Source of the DNA: Candidatus Peregrinibacteria bacterium
Lineage (GTDB): Bacteria; Patescibacteriota; Gracilibacteria; Peribacterales; Peribacteraceae
Direction: 5' to 3'
Assembly (NCBI GenBank): GCA_016196225.1
Contig: JACPXZ010000010.1
Location: 1 to 64,000, forward strand
Length of the DNA stretch: 64,000 bases
Shown: positions 6,048 through 53,190 of the stretch, in pieces
Position numbering within the stretch: position 1 is the stretch's first letter
Layout: the number at the start of each line of letters is the position of its first letter
The notes under the pieces: model-generated
What the model saw: only the letters and a program-made list of their open reading frames with translations
What the model was told of the DNA's origin: nothing
The model's database searches: none
Translations under genes and position numbers: made by a program

Positions 6048-6509
6048 ATGATCGAAGGCGATATCCTCGAAAATCCCGACGAACTTCGCCGACGCTTGGG
6101 CGGCAAGCGTGCGGGGAGGCCCGGGGAAGGATTCGCGGACATTCGCATTGTGACCGATCCGGTGGAAGAGATCGAAACGATCGGCCAGCAACTCTATCGG
6201 TTGTCCCGTCGTATGCGAAGACTTTGTGATTATGAAGATAATCCGGACCAATTCATGATGCGCTGCCCCAAATGCGATCTCATGAACGATTTTACGAGCA
6301 CCGGACAGCAGATATTTTATTTTGAGAGTGAATGGAAAGGCGATCGCCCACCCGATCATTCCACAACCCCCAAACGCATCTCGGTGATCCGCTATGAGGG
6401 CGATCGGGCGATCTGCAAATGCGGCAATTGCGGAGAGGAATTCGAGCCGGAGTCTTCTCCTGATCCCATTCCTTTTCTTCCCTCTCCCGACGGGAGAGGG
6501 CCAGGGTGA
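6048..6509 (+). CDS. Zinc-ribbon hypothetical protein ending in a palindromic repeat
   Basis: A 153-residue cytoplasmic protein. The N-terminus is charged (DELRRRLGGKRAGRPGEGF); a helical stretch with RLSRRMRRLCDYEDN follows, then CPKC (~residue 73) and CKCGNCG (~residue 125), which could together bind zinc. The final residues PFLPSPDGRGPG are encoded by a palindromic repeat that also supplies the stop, so the original C-terminus may have been replaced. Function unknown. Confidence 0.55.
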   Translation: MIEGDILENPDELRRRLGGKRAGRPGEGFADIRIVTDPVEEIETIGQQLYRLSRRMRRLCDYEDNPDQFMMRCPKCDLMNDFTSTGQQIFYFESEWKGDRPPDHSTTPKRISVIRYEGDRAICKCGNCGEEFEPESSPDPIPFLPSPDGRGPG

Positions 6510-6585
6510 GGGGGTCAGATAGTATCTATACATAAACGAGCCTCATACCCCCTCACCTCATTCCTCTCCCGTCGGGAGAGGAGGA
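6481..6585. repeat. Inverted pair of CTCTCCCG palindromes between convergent genes
   Basis: Copy one (6481-6515) holds CCTCTCCCGACGGGAGAGG followed by CAGGGTGAGGGGG. Copy two (6547-6585) is its mirror, CCCCCTCACC then CCTCTCCCGTCGGGAGAGG. Each is a hairpin and the pair can form a larger one. They lie between a plus-strand and a minus-strand gene and probably end transcription from both sides. Confidence 0.75.
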
Positions 6586-14620: not shown

Positions 14621-14647
14621 TATACAATTTATTTATTATTTAGTCAA
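14619..14647 (-). promoter_or_regulatory. Strong sigma70 promoter
   Basis: Minus strand TTGACT (14642-14647), 17 bases, TATAAT (14619-14624). It would start transcription near 14612 for the small hypothetical gene. The -35 box lies in the last codons of the lamin-tail gene. Confidence 0.8.
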
Positions 14648-17109
14648 ACGCTCCTTCCCCCGAATACAAACCAAAGACCGGACAACAGACTTACGGCCAC
14701 AAGAAGGGATTCCCACATGTCACCATGAGTATTTTTACTTACCATGATATCTCGATGATCGGCCATCTCTAAGACCTCGGCCAAGAAGGGAGAAGTGACT
14801 TCGGGAAGCTTTGAATGTGATTTAAGGAGAATGTGTTGGTAGATGGTTTTAAGAGATAAAATATTGAATATATTATTTGATCGTGAATTCGATTTTAGAG
14901 CTTCATATAATGATTTTTCTTCATATTCTTTAGCCCCCCTCCTTAATCCTCCCCCTATGGGGGAGGTGCTCCTGAGAGAGAAGGAATCTGAGCAAATATT
15001 TTCTTTGAGAGGAGTAGATATCTCTGTGGTACACCATCGGCTTCCTTTTCGACTAAAGGATAATCCTCTCTTGATTTTGGGATACGTCACAGAATCAATC
15101 GTCAAACCATCTGGTCCAAACAGATTCACTTCATCTCCATCATTATTAAGCGCCAAATGTGTTTGTTCTTTGCGAAAGATAATATAGCTATGAGCCGGGA
15201 CCAGCGTTCCATCAGAGATCTCCCAAAGTTTACTCCCACCCTCCTGAATATCATCAATCAAAAGACCAGACAGGTCTACCGATTCATCGGAGAGGTTCAC
15301 GAGCTCGATCCATTCTTCTCCGCCGGTAAGGGGGGCGGGGTAAACTTCATTAATGAGAATAGTACCGGTAAAGGGAATTCCCCCCTCCCTACCCTCCCCC
15401 AATGAGGGAGGTGCTCCGAATTCACTCCTATCCATATAAGATTGTCCTTCGGGGATTTCTGAATATGCAATCTCTTGAACAAGATTCCCGTTAAAGAGCA
15501 GACGGACGGAATCTCCGCCGTTATTGAGGGCAATCTTTGTTTCCTGAATAGAAAGTCGTCGTAGTCCACCCGGTTCAATCCTCACACTATCTAATGGGAA
15601 TGGCTTGCTCCCTCCCTCGCTATCATCCAATACCCACCCACAGAGATTGGCCGAGTATGAATTTGAATTCTTAAGTTCAATCCACTCTCCAACCCCGCAG
15701 AGCTCTCCTTCGCAAGCTTCGGAGAGCGGCGTGGGGTCTCTTCCTTTGTCCGACCCCACTGGATTTGGAATAAAGTCAGTGATCACAGTCCCTGTCGAAA
15801 CCGACGGGGTACATGTAGATTCTGCCCCATCGAAATTGTAAGACGCCTCCTGATACACTCCTGTTTCTAAGACCTCTATCTCCAATATACGTTCCACTGT
15901 ATTACTACAATAATCCTTTACCGAAAGATGAATATCATATCTCCCAATCGTCCGAAATGTATGCGACGGAGGGTTGCAACTGTCACTGGTGTATCCATCA
16001 GAGTAATCCCAAGAGCATTTTGCAGATGTTAAAGATCCACTCGAAACCCTCGCCTCCAGATTGATCGTAACTTTTAAGGGGGCATGTGTCTCACCGGATT
16101 GAACAGAAATAACAGGATCAGGAAGAATAACTGCATTAGCCTTCCCCTTTGTCGGTATACAAAATGATTGAAAACTTTCGCCCAGCCGACCGTAGCTAAT
16201 TCCTTCGGGTAGTTCAGAATACTCAACAGAATCAATAAGCATCTCTCCATAGAGCAAACGCACAATATCCCCGGCATTACGAAGGGATAACCCGGTGACC
16301 GATCGATCCAACGCCAAATATTCCCCCGATCCAAGAGAACGCTCTGGTAATACAAATGTTCCACCCTCTCCTACACCGAGGAGAAGCCCTCCAATATTGA
16401 GAGCGCCCGAACCGGTATTCGCAATCTCAATCCATTCCCCATCGGTATCGCTCCCTACGGGATCTGATAATACTTCTGTAATTTTTAGCTTATTAAAGGA
16501 CTCTAATTGAATTTCTGAATCATTTATTTGTTCATTTTCTACAATACTATTTGGGTTCCCGGGTGTCCCAAAGATAAGTGTCCCACTGTCAAAACCAAGT
16601 GAAAGGATTGCAGCTTGCCAGTTATTCTTTAATCCTCCCGAACCAATCAGGCTAATACGTTCCATACTTGCTTTGGGATCAGTGTTGGAACCTGCAAAAG
16701 GATCCCCTACCCCATCATCAGCGCTGTCGATGAGATTTCCCTCTTGATCACGAAGACGTAACAGCAACTTGGTATTTGCAAGAACCATGTTTGTTGTCAC
16801 AAGAAGAGGATCCGCTGCCAACCGTGATTCATCTGCCGAGTAATTACTTATGAGAATGTATTGCCCCGATCCAATAAATGTATTGCCAAACCGAATAATA
16901 GTCTCTTCTTGTTCATCTTTTAACCGGCTTAATGTCCATCCCGATAACGACATCGGTTCGTTGCCAAAAATCTCCACCCACTCATCCGCAGAACTCAAAT
17001 CGGACCCCATCCACATCACTTCCGAAATCACAACTGAAAGATTTTCCGCGGCTATTGCATCAGGTACGTATCCGACGAGTGCAATAATGATCAACCACGT
17101 CATCTTCAT
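14644..17109 (-). CDS. Secreted multi-domain lamin-tail (LTD) surface protein
   Basis: An 821-residue exported protein with a signal peptide (MKMTWLIIIALVGYVPDAIAA). Four lamin-tail-type domains are visible, each with an ADEWVEI/GEWIEI/EEWIELVN strand, an LSGW or LSGLLI element and an L(A)LNNGGDSVRL element, at about residues 25-160, 205-310, 440-560 and 590-690. A PKD-like domain (CSWDYSDGYTSDSC...FRTIGRYDIHLSVKD) sits between the second and third. The C-terminus has one membrane helix (SLLVAVSLLSGLWFVF). Two palindromic repeats are inserted in frame in different reading frames. LTD domains occur in secreted nucleases and surface proteins; no nuclease motif is seen here. Confidence 0.82.
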   Translation of the reverse strand: MKMTWLIIIALVGYVPDAIAAENLSVVISEVMWMGSDLSSADEWVEIFGNEPMSLSGWTLSRLKDEQEETIIRFGNTFIGSGQYILISNYSADESRLAADPLLVTTNMVLANTKLLLRLRDQEGNLIDSADDGVGDPFAGSNTDPKASMERISLIGSGGLKNNWQAAILSLGFDSGTLIFGTPGNPNSIVENEQINDSEIQLESFNKLKITEVLSDPVGSDTDGEWIEIANTGSGALNIGGLLLGVGEGGTFVLPERSLGSGEYLALDRSVTGLSLRNAGDIVRLLYGEMLIDSVEYSELPEGISYGRLGESFQSFCIPTKGKANAVILPDPVISVQSGETHAPLKVTINLEARVSSGSLTSAKCSWDYSDGYTSDSCNPPSHTFRTIGRYDIHLSVKDYCSNTVERILEIEVLETGVYQEASYNFDGAESTCTPSVSTGTVITDFIPNPVGSDKGRDPTPLSEACEGELCGVGEWIELKNSNSYSANLCGWVLDDSEGGSKPFPLDSVRIEPGGLRRLSIQETKIALNNGGDSVRLLFNGNLVQEIAYSEIPEGQSYMDRSEFGAPPSLGEGREGGIPFTGTILINEVYPAPLTGGEEWIELVNLSDESVDLSGLLIDDIQEGGSKLWEISDGTLVPAHSYIIFRKEQTHLALNNDGDEVNLFGPDGLTIDSVTYPKIKRGLSFSRKGSRWCTTEISTPLKENICSDSFSLRSTSPIGGGLRRGAKEYEEKSLYEALKSNSRSNNIFNILSLKTIYQHILLKSHSKLPEVTSPFLAEVLEMADHRDIMVSKNTHGDMWESLLVAVSLLSGLWFVFGGRSV
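14934..14973. repeat. In-frame palindromic element, copy 1 (LTD gene)
   Basis: Contains TCCTCCCCCTATGGGGGAGG next to a C-rich arm. On the coding strand it encodes RSTSPIGGGLRRG. The same element at 15379 and 26783 is read in the other two frames. Confidence 0.85.
15379..15416. repeat. In-frame palindromic element, copy 2 (LTD gene)
   Basis: Variant of copy 1 with CCTCCCCCAATGAGGGAGG. It encodes GAPPSLGEGREGG between two lamin-tail domains, so it is read in a different frame from copy 1. Confidence 0.82.
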
Positions 17110-17233
17110 AAAAAGGATTGATTGTAATGAAGCAGCGATAGATTTTCAAAAAATCTGTGCTATGCTTCCTATCGATGTTTTTATTCAGCCATCACGAAAC
17201 AGTCATTCCTTTTAATTTTGCCCCTATGTCACC

Positions 17234-18787
17234 ATGGATATTATCGCGCTTATCGCCCTCGCTATTGGGGGAGCTCTCGGCATATACCTCGGTCGATCCC
17301 TCTTCTCGAAAGGTTCCACTATCAGTCGCTCTCTCCAGCAGGAAATTGACGAAAAAGAAGGGCGTCTCAGGGACCTAAAAACCAAGATTTCCGATTCCGA
17401 ATCACGCATTCGGTCTGCCGAAGCGGAGGCTAAGGCAACCGCCAAAGAAGTCCTTGCCGATGCCCGATTGCAAGCTCGCGAACTTACCGGAAAAATCGAA
17501 AAAGATCAGGTACGACTCGAAGAAAAAGAACGCGGTCTCGATCAAAAAGTCCAGGAGCTCGCTCTCCAACGTACGAACCTCGAAAAATCCCAGTCCCATG
17601 TCAAAGAACTGGAGACCGAACTCAAAGATGCAAGCTCCGCGCATCGCCAAGCTCTGGAAAAAGTAGCCAAACTTTCTACGGAGCAGGCAAAAGAACAACT
17701 TGCCCACGAATTAGAAGCGGAGTTTGGTGAATTTTTTGCCAAACGCATCAAAGCAAAAGAGCAGGAAATTGAACAAACAGTCGAAGATCGGGCCCGCGAT
17801 CTTATGGCGCAGGCCATGCAGCGCTTTGCATCCGAAGTCGCCAGCGAATCCACAACCACCGCCGTTCAGATCCCTTCGGACGATATCAAAGGGAAAATCA
17901 TCGGGAAAGAAGGGCGAAATATCAACGCCTTCGAACAGGCGACCGGCGTTGACGTTATCATCGATGACACTCCCGGGATCATCGTGCTCTCGGGATTCGA
18001 CCTTGCCCGTCGATACGTCGCAAAACTTGCTATGGAAAAATTGATTCAGGATGGCCGCATCCAACCCGCCCGCATCGAAGAAATCGTCGGCAAAATGAAG
18101 GAGCAGGTCGGTAAAATGATGCTCGAGTTCGGCAAACGGGCCGTCGATGAACTCAATATTACCGGCTACCCTACGGATCTCCTCAAGATCATCGGACGTC
18201 TCCGCTTCCGCACAAGCTACGGTCAAAATATTCTCAAGCATTCCGTCGAAATGGCGCATATCGGACGCATGCTCGCGGAAGAACTGGGAGTCGATCCGAC
18301 GATTGTCCTCGAAGGATGCCTCCTCCATGATATCGGTAAAGCACTCGACCACGAAGTGATCGGGACACATGTCGAGATCGGAGTTGAGATTTGCAAACGT
18401 TTCAAGATCCGGGATCCGGTCATTCATTGCGTCGCCGCACACCACGAAGATATCCCCATGGCCACCCCCGAGGCCTTCGTTGTCGCAGCGGTGGATGCGC
18501 TTTCCGGTGCACGTCCCGGGGCGCGAAAAGAATCCATCGAGGCCTACTTTAAACGTCTCCGGGACCTTGAAGAACTGACCAAAAAATTTGAAGGGGTTCA
18601 GCGCGCCTTCGCCGTCTCTGCAGGTCGTGAGATACGGGTATATGTTGATACGAAAAAAGTGAACGACCTTGAGCAGGAAAAACTTGCCAAATCGATTGCT
18701 GAGAACATTGAGAATGAACTCACGTACCCCGGTATCATCAAAGTCAATGTGATCCGTGAACGACGGATCGAAGAATCCGCCCGCTAA
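17234..18787 (+). CDS. rny: Ribonuclease Y
   Basis: The membrane-anchored endonuclease that initiates mRNA decay. The 517 residues match the usual length. Order: N-terminal membrane helix (DIIALIALAIGGALGIYLG), long charged coiled coil (residues ~30-200), KH domain (IPSDDIKGKIIGKEGRNINA, with the GKEG loop), HD domain with HSVEMAH, LLHDIGKALDHE and AAHHEDI, and the conserved C-terminus ending YPGIIKVNVIRERR. First gene of a plus-strand pair with the SLH protein. No obvious SD lies in front of the ATG. Confidence 0.96.
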   Translation: MDIIALIALAIGGALGIYLGRSLFSKGSTISRSLQQEIDEKEGRLRDLKTKISDSESRIRSAEAEAKATAKEVLADARLQARELTGKIEKDQVRLEEKERGLDQKVQELALQRTNLEKSQSHVKELETELKDASSAHRQALEKVAKLSTEQAKEQLAHELEAEFGEFFAKRIKAKEQEIEQTVEDRARDLMAQAMQRFASEVASESTTTAVQIPSDDIKGKIIGKEGRNINAFEQATGVDVIIDDTPGIIVLSGFDLARRYVAKLAMEKLIQDGRIQPARIEEIVGKMKEQVGKMMLEFGKRAVDELNITGYPTDLLKIIGRLRFRTSYGQNILKHSVEMAHIGRMLAEELGVDPTIVLEGCLLHDIGKALDHEVIGTHVEIGVEICKRFKIRDPVIHCVAAHHEDIPMATPEAFVVAAVDALSGARPGARKESIEAYFKRLRDLEELTKKFEGVQRAFAVSAGREIRVYVDTKKVNDLEQEKLAKSIAENIENELTYPGIIKVNVIRERRIEESAR

Positions 18788-18800
18788 TGCTCTCTCTTGT

Positions 18801-19586
18801 ATGTCTCGTCTCCCACTCATCTGCGCCTCTCTCCTTGCGATCCTTCTCCTGATCCTTACTGCAAATTACACATCGCACTGGAATGCCGCTATCAATCTTC
18901 CGTTCTCCGATATCGATCAAAAGTCTCTTGCAGGTCATGCCACGCTGTACTTCGCTCACCGGGACTTTCTCCAGGGATTTCCGGACGGAACCTTTCGGGG
19001 ATCATCGATCGTGAATCGTGCCGAGGCAGCAAAACTCCTCGTCCTCGCCGCAGGTTTGTCCTTCAATGAGGATCTCCCGAACCCCTTCTCGGACGTCCCA
19101 CAGAGCGAATGGTTTACCCCCTTCGTCCTTGCCGCGCGCGAAAAGGGGATCCTCGATGGATATCCGGATGGTTCCTTCCGCCCTGCCCGTGGGATTACCA
19201 CCGCAGAATTCATCAAGATGGCCACCAATGCATTCGAACTTCCTCTTTCGCTCCCCCATCGCTTTACCGACTTCCATGCAGGATCATGGTTCACTCCGTT
19301 TGCCGGTACCGCTTGGCACTACCACCTCTTCCCCGAACGCTTGAATACCAATGTCCTTTTACCCGAAGAACTTCTTTCCCGTAACGACATGATCGTTGCT
19401 CTCTACCAAATCGCCACCTTCGGGACGAAGGCGCACTTTATTGATCCTGATTGGAATCTGCGACAAGACCGCACCGATATATTGCGATCTCGCGGACAAT
19501 TTCATGCTGGAGGAAAATCCCTCCCCAGCCCCCACCTCACGGGTGGGATCCTCCCGGGAACGGGAGGAGTGGTGCCGGGAACGTAG
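18801..19586 (+). CDS. SLH-domain exported protein
   Basis: A 261-residue protein with an N-terminal hydrophobic signal (LPLICASLLAILLLILTA) and two or three SLH motifs: FLQGFPDGTFRGSSIVNRAEAAKLLV and ILDGYPDGSFRPARGITTAEFIKMA are clear, and a third around FTDFHAGSWFTPF is degenerate. SLH domains anchor proteins to secondary wall polymers or the S-layer. The ATG at 18801 (MSRLPL) is just after the rny stop; an upstream start would lie inside rny. The last ~25 residues are encoded by a cluster of palindromic repeats (GGILPGTGGVVPGT), so the natural C-terminus may have been changed. Confidence 0.8.
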   Translation: MSRLPLICASLLAILLLILTANYTSHWNAAINLPFSDIDQKSLAGHATLYFAHRDFLQGFPDGTFRGSSIVNRAEAAKLLVLAAGLSFNEDLPNPFSDVPQSEWFTPFVLAAREKGILDGYPDGSFRPARGITTAEFIKMATNAFELPLSLPHRFTDFHAGSWFTPFAGTAWHYHLFPERLNTNVLLPEELLSRNDMIVALYQIATFGTKAHFIDPDWNLRQDRTDILRSRGQFHAGGKSLPSPHLTGGILPGTGGVVPGT

Positions 19587-19741
19587 GAAGAGGTTTGCGG
19601 AGTCACCTCCCCCTTGAGGGGGAGGATGAAGGAGGGGGGGTCGGTGTGGTCTGCAATACAAACAAATCCGTCTTACCCCCTCCCCTGGCACGTCGGTCGC
19701 GACCGACGTGCCCTTCCCCTCCCTCCAGGGAGGGGTGCGCA
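19527..19741. repeat. Cluster of palindromic repeat elements
   Basis: Successive hairpins: CCACCTCACGGGTGGG, CCTCCCGGGAACGGGAGG, CACCTCCCCCTTGAGGGGGAGG followed by GATGAAGGAGGGGG, CACGTCGGTCGCGACCGACGTG, and CCCCTCCCTCCAGGGAGGGG. The third is the same family as the elements inside the LTD, folP and phosphomannomutase genes. They separate the convergent SLH and mutY genes and could terminate both transcripts. Confidence 0.8.
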
Positions 19742-19754
19742 AGCGATTCTCCTA

Positions 19755-20663
19755 CTAATCTTTCAATATATATGTTCCTTTTTGTTCAGAAATCAACGCA
19801 TCTTTTTTTAACTTCTCCAGAATGGTCGTTAACCATTCCTGGTGGACTCTCCTATCCCAATCGGAACAAATATACTTCCCCATCTCCGATAACGAAACCC
19901 CACGCGTTTGATCTCGCAATACCTCAATGATCTTCCCACGAAAAATGCGATTGGGGATATATCGCGACCCGACAGTACGCCCCGGTTCTGTGCGAGTATT
20001 TCTCGAAATTTTCACGGCTTTTTCCTTCAGTGATCCATAATCCATCAACGCGTGATGCCAATCGGCTGCCGGATACTGAACAACTGATCGCGGATACTCA
20101 CTCACTGCAATCTGCAGCACCTCTCTGGCAAGAGACAAAAGGGCGCAGTCGCTCTTTTTCCATGTTCCATCCGAACGTTCCGGTCCGATAAAAGCACGAT
20201 GGAGCACGCGACGGATATTGGTATCAAGACACGGTGTGGGAATGTTAAACGCAAAGTTCCTTATCGCCGCCGCCGTGTAGGGACCAATCCCCGGAATCTT
20301 TAGAAGTTTATCCACAGTTTTAGGAAATCTGATTGAGTCAATCGTTCGTGCCGCATCTCTCAACATCAATGCTCTCCTGTTATAGCCCAATCCTCTCCAC
20401 GCGAAGACCACTTCTTTATTCGATGCTTTTGCCAAATCCCCCATCGTCGGAAACTTTTCCAAAAATTGCGGAAACAGAACCATCACCCGAGGAACCTGCG
20501 TCTGTTGAAGCATCACCTCTGATACCAATACCTTGTACGCACGCATTCCTTCGGATTCATGCCAAAGATCCCGCCACGGCAGCATCCGCTTATGATGGGT
20601 ATACCATGACCAGATTTTATCGGTAAACCCACGAAGGCGTGTTTTTGCGATCACAAACACCAT
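19755..20663 (-). CDS. mutY: A/G-specific adenine glycosylase without Fe-S cluster cysteines
   Basis: MutY removes adenine mispaired with 8-oxoguanine. The 302-residue protein has the HhH-GPD core: LPWRDLWHESEGMRAYKVLVSEVMLQQTQVPRV is split by the catalytic Glu region, KIPGIGPYTAAAI is the helix-hairpin-helix, and CLDTNIRRVLHR carries the catalytic Asp. After ALMDYGSL, where the C-x6-C-x2-C-x5-C cluster normally follows, there is KEKAVKISRNTRTEPGR with no Cys. The C-terminal ~70 residues look like a winged helix (VSLSEMGKYICSD) rather than the NUDIX-like domain. Start ATG 20663; the longer frame upstream is antisense to tuf and is not coding. Confidence 0.85.
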   Translation of the reverse strand: MVFVIAKTRLRGFTDKIWSWYTHHKRMLPWRDLWHESEGMRAYKVLVSEVMLQQTQVPRVMVLFPQFLEKFPTMGDLAKASNKEVVFAWRGLGYNRRALMLRDAARTIDSIRFPKTVDKLLKIPGIGPYTAAAIRNFAFNIPTPCLDTNIRRVLHRAFIGPERSDGTWKKSDCALLSLAREVLQIAVSEYPRSVVQYPAADWHHALMDYGSLKEKAVKISRNTRTEPGRTVGSRYIPNRIFRGKIIEVLRDQTRGVSLSEMGKYICSDWDRRVHQEWLTTILEKLKKDALISEQKGTYILKD

Positions 20664-20682
20664 TCTATCATCGGTTTCCCCC

Positions 20683-20710
20683 TTGACTCCCCTTAAACTT
20701 CCCCTAGAAT
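20683..20710 (+). promoter_or_regulatory. Promoter of tuf
   Basis: TTGACT (20683-20688), 16 bases, TAGAAT (20705-20710), giving a start near 20717 and a ~33-nt leader. The leader (CCCCCTCTTTTTT before ATG) contains no Shine-Dalgarno sequence. Confidence 0.7.
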
Positions 20711-20750
20711 TTTCCGGCAATACGTTATTACTGGTTTCCCCCTCTTTTTT

Positions 20751-21932
<1,182 letters not shown>

Positions 21933-21983
21933 TTCGCAGAGAGCCCAGTCTCTTCTTGTTCTTTCTCTTCTCCTTTGTTCCCT

Positions 21984-22382
21984 ATGCCGCCCCGTAAGAA
22001 GACCTCCAAAAAATCCGCTCCCTCTCCAACTCCTCAAGACAAGAAAAAGGCATCCAAAGGAGGCAGCGCTGCTCCCTCAGGAGGTATCCGTATCCGCTTA
22101 AGCGCTTTTGATCACAACGTCCTTGACGAAGCGGCGGCCAAAATCCTGGATTCGGCTCTCCGCAGCGGCGCCGTAGTTCACGGTCCGATCCCCCTCCCGA
22201 CCCGTATTCGCAAATTTACCGTGAATCGCTCTACCTTTGTGCATAAAAATGCACGGGATCAGTTTGAGATGCGTACCCATCGTCGGCTCATTGATTTGAC
22301 CGAAACCACCTTTAAAACAGTTGAAAGTCTTCAGGACTTAAGCCTCCCCTCGGGGGTCGATATTGAGATTAAAATGAAGTAA
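21984..22382 (+). CDS. rpsJ: Ribosomal protein uS10 (NusE) with basic N-terminal extension
   Basis: uS10 is part of the small-subunit head and, as NusE, pairs with NusB in transcription antitermination. The conserved domain spans residues ~36-132: [59 protein letters not shown]. It is preceded by about 35 Lys/Ser/Pro-rich residues ([20 protein letters not shown]), an extension not seen in the ~102-residue standard form. The ATG at 21984 is preferred to a TTG three codons earlier. The stop TAA is directly followed by ATG of nusB. Confidence 0.95.
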
Positions 22383-22787
22383 ATGGCGCGCCGCAGACAC
22401 CTCTCCCGGATCGCCGTGATGCAAGTTCTCTTCGAACGTGAACGTCATCCGGACACGGACCCCCTGACGATGCTTGCCTACGATGCTTCGGAGATCGGAG
22501 ATATCGATCAGGACTTTGCCTGCTCTCTCCTTGCGGGGATCCTCGAACACGAACCGCACATCCGCGATATCATCACGACGTATGCGCCGGCATGGTCTCC
22601 CGAACGCATGGATCCTATTTCCCGCTGCGTGCTCCTGATCGGGGGCTTCGAACTTTTGCACAGCAATGATGCGCCCCCAGCGGTCATCATCAACGAAGCC
22701 ATCGAGATCGCCAAAGAATATGGAAATGAAGAAAGCGGAAAATTCGTCAACGGCGTCCTCAATGCGATTGCCCATCGAAAACCGTAA
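22383..22787 (+). CDS. nusB: Transcription antitermination factor NusB
   Basis: Binds boxA RNA as a heterodimer with NusE/uS10 in rRNA antitermination. The 134-residue all-helical protein shows the family start MARRRHLSRIAVMQVLFERE, the RMDPISRCVLLIGGFELLHS segment, and the conserved PPAVIINEAIEIAKEYGNEESGKFVNGVLNAI (shown only in part by name). It begins immediately after the rpsJ stop (TAAATG), so the two partner proteins are translationally coupled. Confidence 0.94.
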   Translation: MARRRHLSRIAVMQVLFERERHPDTDPLTMLAYDASEIGDIDQDFACSLLAGILEHEPHIRDIITTYAPAWSPERMDPISRCVLLIGGFELLHSNDAPPAVIINEAIEIAKEYGNEESGKFVNGVLNAIAHRKP

Positions 22788-22802
22788 GGTACACTTCAAT
22801 CT

Positions 22803-23501
22803 ATGGTACAAAAGTCGTTCCTCCCGCTCGAACGCATCATTGGGGTTACCTTTCACAAAAAAGACCTCCTTGCCCAAGCCCTCACTCACCGAAGTGCGGT
22901 CCGCGAAAGCCGCGCCCATGGCAATAATGAGCGACTCGAATTTTTGGGAGATGCCGTACTGGAACTTTCGGTAACCGATCACCTTTTTCGCAGTTCGGAT
23001 CGACCGGAAGGGGAACTGACCAACTGGCGTTCGGCCCTTGTCCAGGGAGAACAACTGGCTCACGTCGCGCGAACGATAAAACTCGGGGAATATCTCTGCA
23101 TGAGTCGGGGAGAAGAGGCAAACGGCGGCCGCGAAAAAGTCTCCACCCTCGCCAACGCTCTCGAGGCTCTTATCGGAGCAATCTATGTCGATCAGGGGTT
23201 TCAAATGGCATGCACCTTCTGTGAACGATTTATTTTTGTACGATTAAAGGACCTAATTGCAGAGGGGAAGGATCGCGATGAGAAAAGTGTCTTCCAGGAA
23301 CAAGCACAAGAACATTACGGGGTTACTCCGCACTACAAAGCACTGAGTGAGTCCGGTCCGGATCATGATAAGCACTTCCTCTGTGCTGTGTTTATCAACG
23401 ATGAAAAAATTGCCGACGGTCACGGCAATAGCAAACAACGCGCCGAACAGGATGCCGCTAAAAAAGCCTTGAAGGTGAAGAAGTGGAAAATTACGCCTTA
23501 A
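22803..23501 (+). CDS. rnc: Ribonuclease III
   Basis: Cleaves double-stranded RNA in rRNA and mRNA maturation. 232 residues. The nuclease domain has the signature NERLEFLGDAVLELSVTDHLF (residues ~40-60) with catalytic Glu/Asp, and the second acidic pair in ANALEALIGAIYVDQG. The dsRNA-binding domain (residues ~160-228) has SVFQEQAQEHYGVTPHY and ends HGNSKQRAEQDAAKKALK. It closes the tuf-rpsJ-nusB-rnc unit; its 3' end overlaps the convergent small basic gene by 11 nt. Confidence 0.96.
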   Translation: MVQKSFLPLERIIGVTFHKKDLLAQALTHRSAVRESRAHGNNERLEFLGDAVLELSVTDHLFRSSDRPEGELTNWRSALVQGEQLAHVARTIKLGEYLCMSRGEEANGGREKVSTLANALEALIGAIYVDQGFQMACTFCERFIFVRLKDLIAEGKDRDEKSVFQEQAQEHYGVTPHYKALSESGPDHDKHFLCAVFINDEKIADGHGNSKQRAEQDAAKKALKVKKWKITP

Positions 23502-23676
23502 TGCGTGTCACCTTTTCGATTGCTTTATCCCCATCATCCTTCTTTGTTGCGATCACCGCATAAGGGGAATTGCGAAGATTCGTCAAACGACGCCGCTCAC
23601 GCTGCATAAATGCAGAATGTTGAGTCCGTGTTTGACTCTTGGATCGCCGCTTTTTGGGGGTGGGACGCTTGGACAT
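23491..23676 (-). CDS. Small basic protein, possibly divergent ribosomal protein bL32
   Basis: A 61-residue very basic protein. The N-terminal PTPKKRRSKSQTRTQHSAF resembles the bL32 start (PKRKTSKSRR...RRxH), but the C-terminal Cys pairs of typical bL32 are absent and replaced by SPYAVIATKKDDGDKAIEKVTRIKA. An RNA-binding role is likely. Convergent with rnc. The bL32 assignment is tentative. Confidence 0.5.
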   Translation of the reverse strand: MSKRPTPKKRRSKSQTRTQHSAFMQRERRRLTNLRNSPYAVIATKKDDGDKAIEKVTRIKA

Positions 23677-23688
23677 GGACTAGGCGAT

Positions 23689-23730
23689 TAGGCAGGTAGG
23701 AAAGTAGGCAGGTAGGCAGGTAGGCAGGTA
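23689..23730. repeat. Short tandem repeat GGCAGGTA
   Basis: Four to five imperfect 8-bp GGCAGGTA units between two minus-strand genes. No gene or promoter is visible in it. Confidence 0.85.
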
Positions 23731-23732
23731 AT

Positions 23733-24422
23733 TTAACGACGGTCGCCGGAGAGGGCGATCATGAAGCGAAGAATGTACAAAAACAAGTTAAAAATATCGA
23801 GATACAGACTAAGCGCAAGGAGGAATGGGTTTAATCCGCGAGCTCCCAGCATCTGGATACGTTGGAGATCGTACGCAGTAAAGAGCCCGAAAATAACGAC
23901 ACCTGCTCCCGAGAAGAGTAGTTCAACTTGCGCTACCCGGAGTGCCGGAATAAAGATCTGGAGTAATGCAAACCCGACAAGACCAAGCAGTGCAAAAAAC
24001 AACGCTCGCCCCATCACCCCCAGATCCCATGTCGTGGTCCGTGCAAATACACATGCAGCGAGCCCCATGAACATCGTCGAAAGAAGAGCATTGATGAGGA
24101 TTGCTCCTCCATTGGCATACCCCGTAAGCACATGGACGATGAACGGGGTGATCGTCAGACCCGAAAGAAACGGGAATATCCCAAAGAGAACATAATTAAG
24201 GGGAGAGCGTTCCATCCAAAGTCCCGAAGTCAGGATGATCCCAAATTCTGCAATAACGAGCAGCCATACCAACCCCGATCCAAAGAGCACCGTAAAAAAT
24301 TGCATTCCTCCATACACTCCAAGCACCGTTAGTCCCATAGCCAACGCAAAAAGTCCATACACTTGCGCCTCCGTGGAAGCGCTCAATACGATAGGCCGGG
24401 AACGGACGAGAGTCTCATGCAT
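23733..24422 (-). CDS. Bax inhibitor-1/YccA family membrane protein
   Basis: A polytopic protein of 229 residues with seven hydrophobic helices. The family pattern is clear in the C-terminal half: GVVIFGLFTAYDLQRIQ followed by ALSLYLDIFNLFLYILRFM, matching the YDxQ and LYLDxxNxFxxLL motifs. BI-1/YccA proteins act as membrane ion-leak or protease-associated factors. ATG 24422 is chosen; the longer frame needs a TTG at 24461 close to the divergent gene. Confidence 0.88.
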   Translation of the reverse strand: MHETLVRSRPIVLSASTEAQVYGLFALAMGLTVLGVYGGMQFFTVLFGSGLVWLLVIAEFGIILTSGLWMERSPLNYVLFGIFPFLSGLTITPFIVHVLTGYANGGAILINALLSTMFMGLAACVFARTTTWDLGVMGRALFFALLGLVGFALLQIFIPALRVAQVELLFSGAGVVIFGLFTAYDLQRIQMLGARGLNPFLLALSLYLDIFNLFLYILRFMIALSGDRR

Positions 24423-24472
24423 CGCTGTAAGGATTGTACCAACGGAGTATGAGTGGTACAATAGGATGATTT

Positions 24473-25285
24473 ATGTGGTTTTTTGCACTTCTCCCACAAA
24501 AAGCGGCTGCTCAGTTCATCCAGGAAATCCAACAGGGAGTACTGAGTTCAACAAACATCGGCCCAGTCGGCGGAGGGGGGGTAGCAGGGCTCCAGACCTT
24601 CCTCATCTCGAATATCTTCCCCATGTTCCAAACGATCTTCCTCGCACTCGCCCTCGTGATGTTCTTTTGGTACGCTCTGCAACTCCTCCTCGAAAGCGGC
24701 GAAGAAGCGACCGTAACGGAAGCAAAACAAGCATACGAATACGCGATTTTTGGAGGGGCAGTCGTCGCCTTTGCAACATTTATTGTCAATTCGTTTGGTG
24801 TGGGACCGGGGGCAGCCGGGAGTACGCTGGTTAATCCCGGCCCCATTAAAACTGCCATCATTGATACGATTATTTATCTCAAAGCCATGGTCTCCGCACT
24901 CGTAACGGTGGCTATCTTTGTTCAGGGATTCCGCTTGATTGCGCTTCAGGGCGCGGAAGGAGAAATGGAAAAACAGAAGAAACAATTCTTTTACACTCTT
25001 GTCGGTGTTGCCATGATTCTCCTGGCCGAGGTGGTGATCTCTGCGATGCAACCACCGGCAGGTTCGGGAATCCTCTCCGCCGAAATTGCAGGGATCGCAA
25101 GTTTTGCTCTCGCAATATTCGGATTATTGGCCGTCATTGCGATTGTTATCGGAGGAGGAATGCTCGTTCTCTCCGTTGACGAAAGTATGAAAGACCAGGC
25201 AAAAACCATTATCCGCGGGGCCGTGATTGCCATCGTGGTCGTGCTCGCATCGTACTCCCTCGTGAAATACGTCCTCACCATGTAA
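24473..25285 (+). CDS. Membrane protein of three tandem VirB2/TrbC-like hairpins
   Basis: 270 residues with six membrane helices arranged as three similar helix-polar loop-helix units: ALVMFFWYALQLLLESGEE...AIFGGAVVAFATF (~50-110), VTVAIFVQGFRLIALQGAEGE...YTLVGVAMILLAEVV (~135-185), and AVIAIVIGGGMLVLSVDES...RGAVIAIVVVLASYS (~215-265). The charged loop with GEE/EGE/DES between helices is the VirB2/TrbC pilin pattern. The stop touches the start of the next gene, which has the same build. In type IV secretion such hairpins form a pilus or membrane conduit; the fused triple form suggests a fixed membrane assembly. Exact role unknown. Confidence 0.7.
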   Translation: MWFFALLPQKAAAQFIQEIQQGVLSSTNIGPVGGGGVAGLQTFLISNIFPMFQTIFLALALVMFFWYALQLLLESGEEATVTEAKQAYEYAIFGGAVVAFATFIVNSFGVGPGAAGSTLVNPGPIKTAIIDTIIYLKAMVSALVTVAIFVQGFRLIALQGAEGEMEKQKKQFFYTLVGVAMILLAEVVISAMQPPAGSGILSAEIAGIASFALAIFGLLAVIAIVIGGGMLVLSVDESMKDQAKTIIRGAVIAIVVVLASYSLVKYVLTM

Positions 25286-26131
25286 ATGTATTCTTTTCTT
25301 ATCGCCCTTTTCGGCATCTTCATCGAGAACGCCTCCGCACAACTGAGCAACATCGCCAATCAGGTTTCGGGTGGACAACTCGTGTCAGGTTTTGGAGGAG
25401 GTCCCGGAGCATCGGGCATCTACGGGATCGCTCAAACACTCTATAACGGATTTCGGGCGATCGTCAGTACCATCGCCATTCTGATGATTATTCGCTCCGG
25501 ACTCCGTCTCATCTACCGATCCGCGGAGGAACAGATGGAAAAGAGCAAACGCGTCATTGCGGGATCCATCGCTGCCATCATGCTCGTGAACCTCGCCCCT
25601 ACTCTCGTTACCGCCATTAGACCGACATCGTGGGGAGGAGGCGGCGGCGGGTTCGTGATCTCGGCAGAACTCTATGGAATCATCGCCTGGGCACAGGTGC
25701 TCGTCGCCACAACTGCGATCCTTATGATTGTCATCAGCGGCATCCGGGCCGTTGTAAGCTACGGGAGTGAGGAAGGAGTATCGCAACTTAAACGAACGGT
25801 TTTTTCGGTCCTTGGAGGATGCGCCATTATTGTCTTCCAGGGATGGATCAAGTCGTCCGTCGGGCTCACTGCCACAGGAACCAGTATCGGTACACCTGTA
25901 GTGGGCAACGCCCTTCTAGGTATTCTCGGAGTGTTTAACCAAATCCTGATCTTTATCGGAGCTGCGGCAGTGGCCGTTGGGATTTATGCGGGAATGCTCA
26001 TGATCACGAGCGCCGGGAACGAAGAACAATTCGGTCGGGGGAAAAGCCTCATCATCCGGGTCGGAGTCGGTCTTCTCGTGATCGTCGCAAGTCTTGCACT
26101 CGCGAACCTCGTGATTGCGACGGTGTTCTAA
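25286..26131 (+). CDS. Second membrane protein of three VirB2/TrbC-like hairpins
   Basis: 281 residues, paralogue of the preceding gene and probably translationally coupled (TAAATG junction). Units: IVSTIAILMIIRSGLRLIYR with SAEEQMEKSKR loop (~55-110), LVATTAILMIVISGIRAVVS with GSEEG loop (~130-185), and FIGAAAVAVGIYAGMLMITS with AGNEEQFGRGK loop (~215-275). The third unit is closest to classical VirB2. An N-terminal hydrophobic segment may be a signal. Together the two proteins could build a heteromeric pore or pilus base. Confidence 0.7.
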   Translation: MYSFLIALFGIFIENASAQLSNIANQVSGGQLVSGFGGGPGASGIYGIAQTLYNGFRAIVSTIAILMIIRSGLRLIYRSAEEQMEKSKRVIAGSIAAIMLVNLAPTLVTAIRPTSWGGGGGGFVISAELYGIIAWAQVLVATTAILMIVISGIRAVVSYGSEEGVSQLKRTVFSVLGGCAIIVFQGWIKSSVGLTATGTSIGTPVVGNALLGILGVFNQILIFIGAAAVAVGIYAGMLMITSAGNEEQFGRGKSLIIRVGVGLLVIVASLALANLVIATVF

Positions 26132-26149
26132 GGAAAAGCTGAAAACCAT

Positions 26150-26285
26150 CCTTCGAGACAGTGAAAACATGTCATGCTGAGGAGGAGCTTCGCTTGCGAA
26201 GCGACGTCTCGAAGCATCATCAAAGGAATATTCGTTTATGGTCCTTCGATACGCCCCGCATGCGCGGGGCTACTCAGGATGACGT
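26150..26285. repeat. Palindromic intergenic repeats
   Basis: Hairpins GCTTCGCTTGCGAAGC and CCCCGCATGCGCGGGG, flanked by CCTTCGA-type borders and ending CTCAGGATGACG. This is a spacer repeat of the style common in CPR genomes and probably ends the convergent membrane-protein and folP transcripts. Confidence 0.75.
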
Positions 26286-27172
26286 GTATGTGTTTTGTAT
26301 GTTTTTTTCAGATTTTCCCTAATCACAGAAGCAACCTCGCACCCCCTCCGTACCTCTTTTACATCATGTGTGCGGATATAGGATGCGCCATGGAGTACAG
26401 CAATGGCGGATGCGGCAATTGTTCCCGGCAACCGATCCCCTGCGTTCAGATTCTCCAAACCGGCAAGAAAGGATTTGCGCGACGGACTAAGGAGGATAGG
26501 ACAGCCAAGTTCCTGAAGTTCCGACAGTCGCGCGATGAGTTCTAATGAATACTTCGGATCACTCGAAACAAAATGCCCCATCCCCGGATCGAGGATGATC
26601 CTCTCCGGAGAAATTCCTGCAGAAATTGCTGCATCCCTTCTTTCTTTTAAACATTCTTTTACGGTTTTAAGGACATCGTCGTATTGAACGTCCTTTATAG
26701 TGGTACGCGGGGAACTATCTTTTGAATACATGAGAACTAATTGAGCATTCGTATCTTTGATGATGTTAAACATGATCTCCGACCCCCCCTCCTTTATCCT
26801 CCCCCTATGGGGGAGGTGCTCCTCCAGGGGAAGCCACCTCCCTGCAGTGATGTCGTTGATCATCATTGCCCCTGCGTCGATGGCAGCACGGGCCACCTCG
26901 GGTTTATAGGAATCAATGGATATATTTGCTTTGGGAAAATTCTTACGAATCGCCTTGATGACCGGGATGGTACGATCCAATTCGTCTTCCACTGACACAC
27001 TGCTCGAATGTGGTCCTGTTGATTCTCCGCCGACCTCAATCCAATCCGCTCCATCGTCGAGCATACGTCCGACTTTCTGTACCGCAGAGTCAATAGAAAC
27101 ATACTGCCCTCCGTCGTAGTACGAATCGGGCGTCACATTGAGAATACCAACGATCTGCAGAAATTTCTTCAC
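26270..27172 (-). CDS. folP: Dihydropteroate synthase with inserted palindromic element
   Basis: Condenses dihydropterin pyrophosphate with p-aminobenzoate in folate synthesis. TIM-barrel motifs: IVGILNVTPDSYYDGG near the N-terminus, DDGADWIEVGGESTGPHS, ISIDSYKPEVARAAIDAGAM, RIILDPGMGHF, LLSPSRKSF, GTIAASAIAVLHGASYIRTHDV. Between AGRW and the next barrel strand lies LPLEEHLPHRGRIKEGG, encoded by the palindromic element at 26783-26822; most family members have no such stretch. GTG 27172 (MKKFLQIVGIL) is chosen; a GTG twelve codons earlier overlaps the divergent gene further. No other folate gene is seen here. Confidence 0.9.
   Translation of the reverse strand: MKKFLQIVGILNVTPDSYYDGGQYVSIDSAVQKVGRMLDDGADWIEVGGESTGPHSSSVSVEDELDRTIPVIKAIRKNFPKANISIDSYKPEVARAAIDAGAMMINDITAGRWLPLEEHLPHRGRIKEGGSEIMFNIIKDTNAQLVLMYSKDSSPRTTIKDVQYDDVLKTVKECLKERRDAAISAGISPERIILDPGMGHFVSSDPKYSLELIARLSELQELGCPILLSPSRKSFLAGLENLNAGDRLPGTIAASAIAVLHGASYIRTHDVKEVRRGCEVASVIRENLKKTYKTHTRHPE
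26783..26822. repeat. In-frame palindromic element, copy 3 (folP)
   Basis: Contains TCCTCCCCCTATGGGGGAGG, identical at its core to copy 1 in the LTD gene (14934). In folP it is read in the third possible frame, giving EHLPHRGRIKEGG. Confidence 0.87.
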
Positions 27173-27189
27173 TGTGCTAGCGTAGTCGT

Positions 27190-28593
27190 ATGAGCACAAT
27201 CGATCCACGGATCTTCAGGGCATACGATATTCGGGGAAAAGCTTTTACGGAAGTTACCGAGGATGCCTGCCGGCAGATCGCGTACGCGTTTGGACAAGAA
27301 TTGGCCAAGCGCTATCAATTGGAATACCCCAAAATCGGAGTCGGACGGGATGCACGGACGCATAGCCCACAGTTCGAAAAGGCCATTATTGAAGGATTAC
27401 TCACTGCCGGATGTCAGGTATGGACTCTTGGTCAAATCCCCTCTCCGACCAACTACTTTACCGTCTGCACCCAAAAACTCGACGGTTCCATCCAAATAAC
27501 CGCCAGTCATAATCATAAAGACGATAACGGCCTAAAGTTGCAGATGCGGGAGGCAGTGGCGTTTTGTGGGGAAGAGATTCAGGAATTGCGGAAAACCATT
27601 GAACACAACCCTCTCCCGGCAAACTCCCCCCCCCTTCATCCCCCCCCAATGGGGAGGGTACCCTTCGATGCCATCACTCCTTACATTAAACATCTGACTG
27701 CGGTATTTAAAGGAGTAGGGAAAGGATTGCATGTCGTCATTGATGGGGGAAATGGAGTGGCCGGTCCGGCATATGTCCAAATTCTAAAAAATATCGGCTG
27801 CACCGTCACGGAACTCTTCATCGAACCGGATGGCACCTTCCCAAACCACGCAGCCGATCCGAGTAAGTGGGACACCCTCAAAGATCTTCAAAAAACTGTC
27901 ACAGAATCGCACTCTGACATCGGACTCGCATTCGATGGAGACGGCGACCGTCTTGGGATTGTGGATGAAACAGGAAAAATTCGAACAGCCGACGAGACTC
28001 TCTTACTCCTCGCGCATGATCATCTCTCGCGTCATCCGGGTTCCCCGATCGTCTTCACTGTGAGTTCGTCCAGCATCCTCGAGTCCGAAATAACACAGTG
28101 GGGCGGAAAACCCGTCATGGAAAAAGTAGGACATGCGTTTGTCGAACATTCAATGGAAACGCATGGTGCGCTCCTTGGGGGCGAGCAATCGGGGCACTTC
28201 TTCTGCTTTGAGAATTACTTCCACTTCGACGATGCAATGGTGGCGGGACTCACCATTCTCAAAATTCTCTCAGGGGCAAAATCTCCGATCTCCATATTAT
28301 GCGATCAATTCCCGCGTGTCTTCCAAGCTCCCGAATCCCGCCCGCACTGCCCTGACGAACAGAAAACCCGTATCGTGATGTCCATTACCAAGCACTTTGC
28401 AAAAACCTATCCGGTGAATTCCCTTGATGGAGTCCGCATTGATTTTGGAGAAGGTGCGTGGGCAGGGATCCGCCAAAGCAATACCTCTCCCTGTTTATCA
28501 GTGTGTATAGAGGCGCGCAGTCCGGAAAAACTGAAAGAGGTGCAAACAATCGTGTGGGCCCACTTAAGGTCATATCCCGAGATTGAGCAATAA
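27190..28593 (+). CDS. Phosphomannomutase/phosphoglucomutase
   Basis: Interconverts hexose 1- and 6-phosphates for nucleotide-sugar synthesis. 467 residues with all four alpha-D-phosphohexomutase landmarks: FRAYDIRGKAF at the start, the phosphoserine loop TASHNHKDDNG (residues ~100-110; the usual SHNP has His instead of Pro), the metal loop DGDGDRLGI, the sugar loop GGEQSGHFF, and a C-terminal phosphate site DGVRIDF...RQSNTSP. Residues about 145-158 (SPPLHPPPMGRVPF) come from a palindromic element inserted in frame, here in the opposite orientation. Starts divergently from folP. Confidence 0.9.
   Translation: MSTIDPRIFRAYDIRGKAFTEVTEDACRQIAYAFGQELAKRYQLEYPKIGVGRDARTHSPQFEKAIIEGLLTAGCQVWTLGQIPSPTNYFTVCTQKLDGSIQITASHNHKDDNGLKLQMREAVAFCGEEIQELRKTIEHNPLPANSPPLHPPPMGRVPFDAITPYIKHLTAVFKGVGKGLHVVIDGGNGVAGPAYVQILKNIGCTVTELFIEPDGTFPNHAADPSKWDTLKDLQKTVTESHSDIGLAFDGDGDRLGIVDETGKIRTADETLLLLAHDHLSRHPGSPIVFTVSSSSILESEITQWGGKPVMEKVGHAFVEHSMETHGALLGGEQSGHFFCFENYFHFDDAMVAGLTILKILSGAKSPISILCDQFPRVFQAPESRPHCPDEQKTRIVMSITKHFAKTYPVNSLDGVRIDFGEGAWAGIRQSNTSPCLSVCIEARSPEKLKEVQTIVWAHLRSYPEIEQ
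27624..27662. repeat. In-frame palindromic element, copy 4 (phosphomannomutase)
   Basis: C-rich arm, CATCCCCCCCC, AATGGGGAGGG: the same element family in reverse orientation relative to the coding strand. It encodes SPPLHPPPMGRV between domains 1 and 2. Confidence 0.78.
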
Positions 28594-53099: not shown

Positions 53100-53176
53100 C
53101 GACCCCCCCCTTCACCCGCCCGTACCGAACGGGTACGTTCGGGCGGGTCCCCTCCTTCAAGGGAGGGGTACCCCCA
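53100..53176. repeat. Composite palindromic repeat
   Basis: A C-rich border, ACCCGCCCGTACCGAACGGG then TACGTTCGGGCGGGT, then CCCCTCCTTCAAGGGAGGGG. The outer borders match the element family found inside the LTD, folP and phosphomannomutase genes; the GC-rich centre is a second inserted palindrome. Lies between convergent genes. Confidence 0.75.
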
Positions 53177-53190
53177 AAGAAGAATGGCTG

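What the first reader, a model, noticed from the sequence alone, without database searches (positions are those of the whole stretch)
14934..27662. Palindromic repeat family inserted in frame inside protein genes, in all three reading frames
One element (C-rich arm, TCCTCCCCCTATGGGGGAGG core, GGTGCTCC end) occurs twice in the LTD gene (14934, 15379), in folP (26783) and reversed in a phosphomannomutase (27624), with spacer copies near 19605 and 53100. The three same-orientation coding copies are read in three different frames (RSTSPIGGG, GAPPSLGEG, EHLPHRGRI), each without breaking the host ORF. This parallels the Rickettsia palindromic elements known to insert into coding genes. Insertion, selection for open frames and tolerated peptides would all be implied. 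folP and phosphomannomutase are core enzymes, so the host proteins presumably still work.
Basis: partly seen in the sequence, partly recalled or inferred. Interest (0 to 1): 0.88.

Follow-up and report, generated by a model that had tools for sequence, protein, structure and literature searches.

The report
Triplex-forming DNA repeats inside protein genes
A ~40-base hairpin repeat, of a kind known in E. coli only between genes, has spread through this small environmental bacterium (a Peribacteria relative) and sits in frame inside about 28 of its genes, including core enzymes, adding short floppy loops that the proteins seem to tolerate.

Summary
All four coding copies exist as stated, and 97 strict copies occur in the 1.09-Mb genome: 33 inside 28 predicted genes, using all six reading frames, and 64 outside or at gene edges. 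Homologues from other genera of the same family lack the element at 15 tested sites; 11 are clean in-frame gains of 10-26 residues (folP +17). The phosphomannomutase site is less clean (+7, in a variable loop).

The element belongs to, or is a close variant of, the G/C-rich intrastrand triplex motif (TM/PIT) described in E. coli, where all 23 copies are intergenic. Its first C-rich block mirrors the hairpin arm, as an intrastrand triplex requires. TM-type copies also lie inside genes in two other Patescibacteria families (14 of 17 sampled), but rarely in closer relatives. The Rickettsia palindromic element parallel holds for behaviour, not membership.

Spacer copies hug gene 3' ends in one orientation. 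I found no mobilising enzyme: two TM-rich relatives lack Y1 transposases. Best explanation: a non-autonomous repeat that inserts broadly, selection keeping in-frame copies in permissive loops. Untested: triplex formation in vivo, translation of the inserts, DNA-level empty sites (no same-genus genome was available).

The parts
14934..14973 (+). Subtype A triplex-motif copy inside the LTD gene; read on the gene's minus strand as RSTSPIGGGLRRGA (residues 713-726), after the last LTD domain
15380..15418 (+). Second copy in the same LTD gene, read in another frame as FGAPPSLGEGREGG (residues 564-577), just before an LTD domain (581-677)
26783..26833 (+). Subtype A copy with a short second hairpin arm, inside folP; the in-frame gain is 17 residues (51 nt) relative to homologues
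27626..27665 (+). Subtype E (all-C) copy inside the phosphomannomutase/phosphoglucomutase gene, read as SPPLHPPPMGRVPF; net +7 residues against relatives
19606..19644 (-). Spacer subtype A copy, 19 nt after the stop codon of the upstream gene
19676..19735 (+). Spacer subtype C copy whose linker holds a nested 26-bp perfect palindrome (GGCACGTCGGTCGCGACCGACGTGCC); forms an inverted pair with 19606-19644
53103..53177 (+). Composite spacer copy: C-rich block and hairpin separated by another palindrome
6480..6515 (-). Subtype D copy (same layout as the E. coli motif), one half of an inverted pair
6547..6582 (+). Subtype D copy, other half of the inverted pair
14644..17109 (-). Host gene: LTD/PKD-domain protein with two copies
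26270..27172 (-). Host gene: folP, dihydropteroate synthase, only copy found in the genome (upstream starts up to 27208 are also open)
27190..28593 (+). Host gene: phosphomannomutase/phosphoglucomutase, only copy found in the genome

Best explanation
The element is a G/C-rich intrastrand triplex motif (three C/G-rich blocks: a hairpin plus a third block that mirrors one arm) that has multiplied in this Peribacteria genome as a non-autonomous repeat. It inserts in many places. Selection removes most gene insertions and keeps those that stay in frame, in loops that tolerate 10-20 extra glycine- and proline-rich residues. Because the blocks are almost pure pyrimidine on one strand and pure purine on the other, nearly all six frames are free of stop codons and encode flexible peptides, which explains why every frame is used. 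In spacers, copies persist mainly just after stop codons, in the orientation that puts a hairpin followed by a purine block into the transcript's 3' end. Shown: copy number, in-frame gains, six-frame use, mirror symmetry, 3'-end bias. Inferred: insertion as the event, selective filtering, translation of the inserts. Unknown: the enzyme or process that copies the element.
For: 97 strict copies, 33 in 28 genes; 34 per Mb in coding DNA against 512 per Mb elsewhere. Relatives lack the element at 15 sites in 14 genes, 11 of them clean in-frame gains. Solved DHPS chains show the same 17-residue gap, and the FolP model puts residues 113-129 in a loop below pLDDT 50 within a confident barrel, pTM 0.83. 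Frame usage 8/4/5 and 5/5/6, with no strand bias inside genes. Element peptides are 37% Gly+Pro against 12% in the rest of the hosts. Block 1 of subtype A is a perfect mirror (Hoogsteen) match in 31 of 47 copies and a perfect direct copy in none; swapping blocks between subtypes lowers the match from 0.93 to 0.77 and from 0.92 to 0.70, shuffled control 0.69. Spacer copies: 35 of 76 adjacent 3' ends lie within 30 nt (6.9 expected, 0 of 1000 random sets), 1 in divergent spacers (16.7 expected), orientation 30:7. Same layout and inverted subtype pairs as the E. coli motif. In-gene copies in two other Patescibacteria families; thioredoxin reductase and glutamate dehydrogenase there compared with solved structures.
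Against: No DNA-level empty site: the nearest genomes are other genera, so insertion ends and target duplications are unknown. Net gains vary (5-26 residues), partly because the loops themselves vary; four of the 15 sites, the mutase among them, could be replacement of loop sequence rather than pure insertion. No mobilising enzyme was found. No proof that the inserts are translated or that the proteins work. The mirror test rests on few independent subtypes: A discriminates mirror from direct copy, C and D do not. Gene calls are my own and unreviewed.
Confidence: 0.8

Rival explanations
1. The in-gene segments are not translated but skipped, like mobile bypass elements of some fungal mitochondria, or removed from the mRNA; the proteins never contain the extra residues.
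For: The elements form RNA hairpins (-12 to -33 kcal/mol), and a gene would then tolerate them in core enzymes.
Against: Skipping would remove the need for an open, in-frame insert, yet at every site with informative homologues both flanks continue in one frame without a stop, and all 33 genic copies are read through. The fungal comparison is from memory.
Confidence: 0.05
2. The repeats are primarily functional 3'-end structures of transcripts (mRNA stability or termination), and copies inside genes are by-products of the same copying process.
For: Strong clustering just after stop codons, near absence between divergent genes, one preferred orientation (A subtype 16:0).
Against: There is no U-run, so it is not a standard terminator; copies inside genes have no strand bias; avoidance of promoters alone would give part of the pattern; E. 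coli PIT/TM motifs showed no promoter or terminator activity (cited in PMC4666352). Compatible with, rather than exclusive of, the best explanation.
Confidence: 0.3
3. REP-type spread: the repeats are mobilised by a Y1 (RAYT-like) transposase.
For: Hairpin repeats with G-rich flanks in inverted pairs resemble REP/BIME; Y1 fragments occur on three small contigs of this assembly.
Against: Relatives G012 and G019, 99% complete, have 26 and 32 TM matches and no Y1 match, while G003 with 9 Y1 matches has no subtype A match. The own Y1 hits are partial, divergent or frame-broken and sit on 3.6-5.9-kb contigs.
Confidence: 0.08
4. Ancestral or convergent low-complexity coding sequence, not an inserted element.
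For: G/P-rich loops can arise by slippage.
Against: Copies share one 40-nt structure across unrelated genes, spacers and both strands; homologues lack the residues.
Confidence: 0.02

Closest known systems
G/C-rich intrastrand triplex motif (TM, TMECO; earlier PIT element), Holder et al. 2015, PMC4666352
   Same: Same three-block layout; subtype D has the same sequence apart from loops (CCCTCACCCTAACCCTCTCCC...GGGAGAGGG); high copy number; inverted pairs made of two different subtypes; loops vary while stems are conserved.
   Different: In E. coli all 23 copies are intergenic; here a third lie inside genes in frame. Subtypes A, C and E with their own matched third block are not in the E. coli table.
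Rickettsia palindromic elements (RPE) and the protein-coding palindromes of Wolbachia and Methanocaldococcus jannaschii
   Same: Palindromic repeats inserted in frame in conserved housekeeping genes at permissive positions; hosts presumably functional.
   Different: RPEs are about 150 bp with a conserved peptide (reviews PMC2229807, PMC10969869); here about 40-51 nt, read in all six frames, triplex-type sequence, in Patescibacteria.
REP/BIME elements with RAYT (Y1) transposases
   Same: Short hairpins in high copy, inverted pairs, placement at gene 3' ends and between convergent genes (REP placement from memory).
   Different: No link to Y1 genes found; many copies inside genes; mirror (triplex) symmetry.
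In-frame MITEs such as ERIC, Correia and Yersinia palindromic sequences (PMC2229807)
   Same: Non-autonomous repeats fused in frame to genes.
   Different: Those are about 100-200 bp, most with terminal inverted repeats and target duplications; neither was demonstrated here.

Membership tests
Intrastrand triplex motif (TM/PIT) | Hairpin of two C/G-rich blocks plus a third block able to lie on it (mirror symmetry) | tested here: met
   31 of 47 subtype A copies perfect, 0 of 47 as direct copy; subtype swaps fall towards the shuffled level
Intrastrand triplex motif (TM/PIT) | E. coli consensus CCCTCNCCC N3-6 GGGNGAGGG N3 GGGNGAGGG | tested here: met
   Met for subtype D: 24 matches of a near-identical pattern in this genome, 0 in the reversed control; consensus read. 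Subtypes A, C and E deviate from it.
Intrastrand triplex motif (TM/PIT) | Intergenic location (as reported for all E. coli copies; descriptive, not defining) | tested here: not met
   33 of 97 copies in genes; E. coli statement
Intrastrand triplex motif (TM/PIT) | Forms a triplex | not testable with these tools
   Sequence potential only; needs CD or NMR
Rickettsia palindromic element | In-frame insertion in conserved protein genes, absent from homologues | tested here: met
Rickettsia palindromic element | Length about 150 bp with a conserved encoded peptide | tested here: not met
   About 40-51 nt, six frames used; RPE size and peptide from PMC10969869
REP element with RAYT | Associated Y1 transposase | tested here: not met
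   G012 and G019 have many TMs and no Y1 match; own hits are fragments on small contigs
MITE | Terminal inverted repeats and target site duplication | tested here: inconclusive
   A hairpin is present, but the ends and target duplications cannot be defined without an empty site from a close strain

The most novel reading that the evidence does not exclude
Triplex motifs are active mobile elements in several Patescibacteria lineages, moved by an unidentified process, and are a recurrent source of new in-frame protein segments in core enzymes, usable in any of six frames because of their purine/pyrimidine design.
Probability: 0.5. Interest if true: 0.75.

Novelty: new variant of a known kind. 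Interest (0 to 1): 0.63.

Why it matters
In-frame palindromes in core genes were reported for Rickettsia, Wolbachia and Methanocaldococcus and treated as exceptional; triplex motifs were known only between genes in E. coli. Here the two meet: a triplex motif acts as a protein-modifying insert in dozens of genes of a minimal genome. It makes two open questions testable: how triplex motifs spread, and how such segments are tolerated by essential enzymes. It also warns that G/P-rich loops in Patescibacteria proteins may be repeat-derived, which matters for alignments, annotation and structure prediction.

Tried and rejected
RAYT/Y1 transposase as mobiliser: Y1 counts do not follow TM counts in relatives. 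G-quadruplex reading: each strand of one copy has only two long G tracts, so the triplex reading fits better (reasoning, not a computed test). Rfam: only tRNAs in the window, no family for the element. RNA folding: the hairpin forms, but the z-scores of single copies are mostly weak. My first gene caller, based on codon usage, failed (34% coding) and was replaced by a hexamer model (88% coding). Two weak gene calls with copies (C11:35520, C38:38766) were dropped from the counts. Ogata 2002 is not held in the library. Searches for papers on triplex motifs inside genes found none. Four same-strand gene pairs flanking a copy closely were flagged as possibly split genes but not tested against homologues.
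Full report
What is there. The window lies in a 1.085-Mb, 38-contig genome; the nearest named genomes are Candidatus Peribacteria. I rebuilt the contigs from stretches and called genes with a hexamer model (1065 genes, 88% coding). A strict search for hairpins of four related stem types gives 97 copies: A (CCTCCCCC stem), C (CCCCTCCC), D (CCCTCTCCC) and E (all C). A relaxed search gives 106 copies against 7 in a reversed-sequence control.

Anatomy. Each copy reads: C-rich block 1, a 3-5-nt linker (often TTNAT), C-rich block 2, a loop of mostly 3-4 nt, G-rich block 3 complementary to block 2, and in A, C and E usually a tail GTRCYCC that sometimes carries a second small hairpin. Block 1 is the mirror image of block 2, so it can lie parallel to block 3 as a third strand: for subtype A, 31 of 47 copies match perfectly in that sense and none as a plain copy of block 2. 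Exchanging blocks between A and C lowers the match from 0.93 to 0.77 and from 0.92 to 0.70, with a shuffled control at 0.69. Subtype D is the G/C-rich intrastrand triplex motif of Holder et al. 2015 (PMC4666352), apart from its loops; those authors also report inverted pairs of two different subtypes, which recur here as C-minus/A-plus pairs about 80 nt apart.

Genes. Excluding two weak gene calls, 33 copies lie inside 28 genes and 64 lie outside or at gene edges: 34 per Mb in coding DNA and 512 per Mb elsewhere. Named hosts include LeuRS (two copies), IleRS, MnmA, phosphopentomutase, MiaA, an RlmB-type methyltransferase, PEP carboxykinase, FolP and the phosphomannomutase, and PurD, RNase HII, an ATP-citrate-lyase-type subunit (two copies) and ribulose-phosphate epimerase. 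A copy also extends the C-terminal end of ribosomal protein S5. For most of these enzymes no second copy was found in the genome. All six reading frames are used (8/4/5 and 5/5/6), without strand bias. The encoded peptides are 37% glycine plus proline against 12% in the rest of the same proteins.

Insertion. FolP homologues from other genera of the same family and from the wider class go straight from NDVTAGR to GD..MF, whereas this protein has WLPLEEHLPHRGRIKEGGS in between, a net gain of 17 residues or 51 nt. Solved DHPS chains show the same 17-residue gap. In the FolP model, residues 113-129 form a loop below pLDDT 50 inside an otherwise confident barrel. Across 15 sites in 14 genes the relatives lack the element. 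Eleven are clean: FolP +17, PurD +12, IleRS +13, MnmA +12, the methyltransferase +17, epimerase +12, a mannosyltransferase-like protein +13, MiaA +12, LeuRS second site +26 or +16, the ATP-citrate-lyase-type subunit second site +10, and a P-loop protein that resembles TsaE (not library-tested) +25. Four are ambiguous because the loop itself varies: phosphomannomutase +7, PEPCK +5, LeuRS first site, RNase HII. No same-genus genome is held, so there is no DNA-level empty site.

Spacer copies behave differently. Of 76 distances from a copy to an adjacent gene 3' end, 35 are within 30 nt (6.9 expected, never reached in 1000 random placements). Only one copy lies between divergent genes (16.7 expected). 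Orientation relative to the upstream gene is 30 opposite to 7 same, and 16:0 for subtype A. The transcript would then carry a hairpin followed by a purine block just after the stop codon. This looks like retention where harm is least, or a 3'-end role; I cannot separate the two.

Other genomes. Subtype A with its linker is almost private to this genome: among 96 relatives no other genome has more than two matches. D-type motifs occur in 34 of 380 genomes of the phylum with no match in the reversed control. In sampled loci, copies lie inside long open frames in 7 of 9 (G268) and 7 of 8 (G436) cases, but rarely in G019 (0/11), G030 (0/6), G012 (2/11, both copies in one doubtful frame) and G159 (1/11). 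In G268, thioredoxin reductase and glutamate dehydrogenase each carry such a segment where solved relatives do not match. In-gene triplex motifs are therefore recurrent in Patescibacteria but lineage-dependent.

Mobiliser. The own genome has only partial, divergent or broken Y1 transposase genes on small contigs. Two relatives at 99% completeness carry 26 and 32 motifs with no Y1 match. A REP/RAYT mechanism is therefore unlikely, and the agent of spread is unknown.

Known or new. In-frame palindromes in core genes are known from Rickettsia, Wolbachia and Methanocaldococcus, and from some MITEs. Triplex motifs are known, but in E. coli strictly between genes, and the paper searches found no report of in-frame copies. 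I therefore file this as a new variant of a known kind: a triplex motif that behaves like a Rickettsia palindromic element.

Noticed in passing
genome-wide; e.g. C12:30888, C1:28286, window 15707: A second palindromic family (about CCTTCGCCAAGGCTACGGCGGGCAGG) has 32 relaxed matches, 17 inside predicted genes; two relatives carry what looks like its peptide (FAKASGGK) at the same LeuRS loop that holds a triplex motif here.
   Followed up: partly
C2:4909, C3:47879, C8:20344, window 19687-19712: Other palindromes (CCTGTCCTGAGCCTGACGAAGG and GGCACGTCGGTCGCGACCGACGTGCC) are nested in the linker of triplex motifs, so repeats insert into repeats.
   Followed up: partly
spacers genome-wide: Spacer copies lie just after stop codons in a preferred orientation and almost never between divergent genes.
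   Followed up: partly
C38:38844-38934: Three tandem subtype A copies with a 36-bp period, i.e. a 12-codon repeat if translated; the gene call there is weak.
   Followed up: no
C22:76436-80755: The isoleucyl-tRNA synthetase gene encodes 1439 aa and matches phosphoglycerate-mutase/phosphatase-type models at residues about 518-914, inside the synthetase.
   Followed up: no
C3:42857-44008 (glycosyltransferase), residues about 147-192: A further repeated in-frame segment (ILRCIANFFMMLRGSANASHLSMTCSNASKDHGN) recurs at C13:62084 and C12:41558 with 72-89% identity.
   Followed up: no
contigs C4, C6, C18: Y1 transposase genes sit only on contigs of 3.6-5.9 kb and are partial, divergent or frame-broken; possibly contaminant contigs of the binned assembly.
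   Followed up: partly
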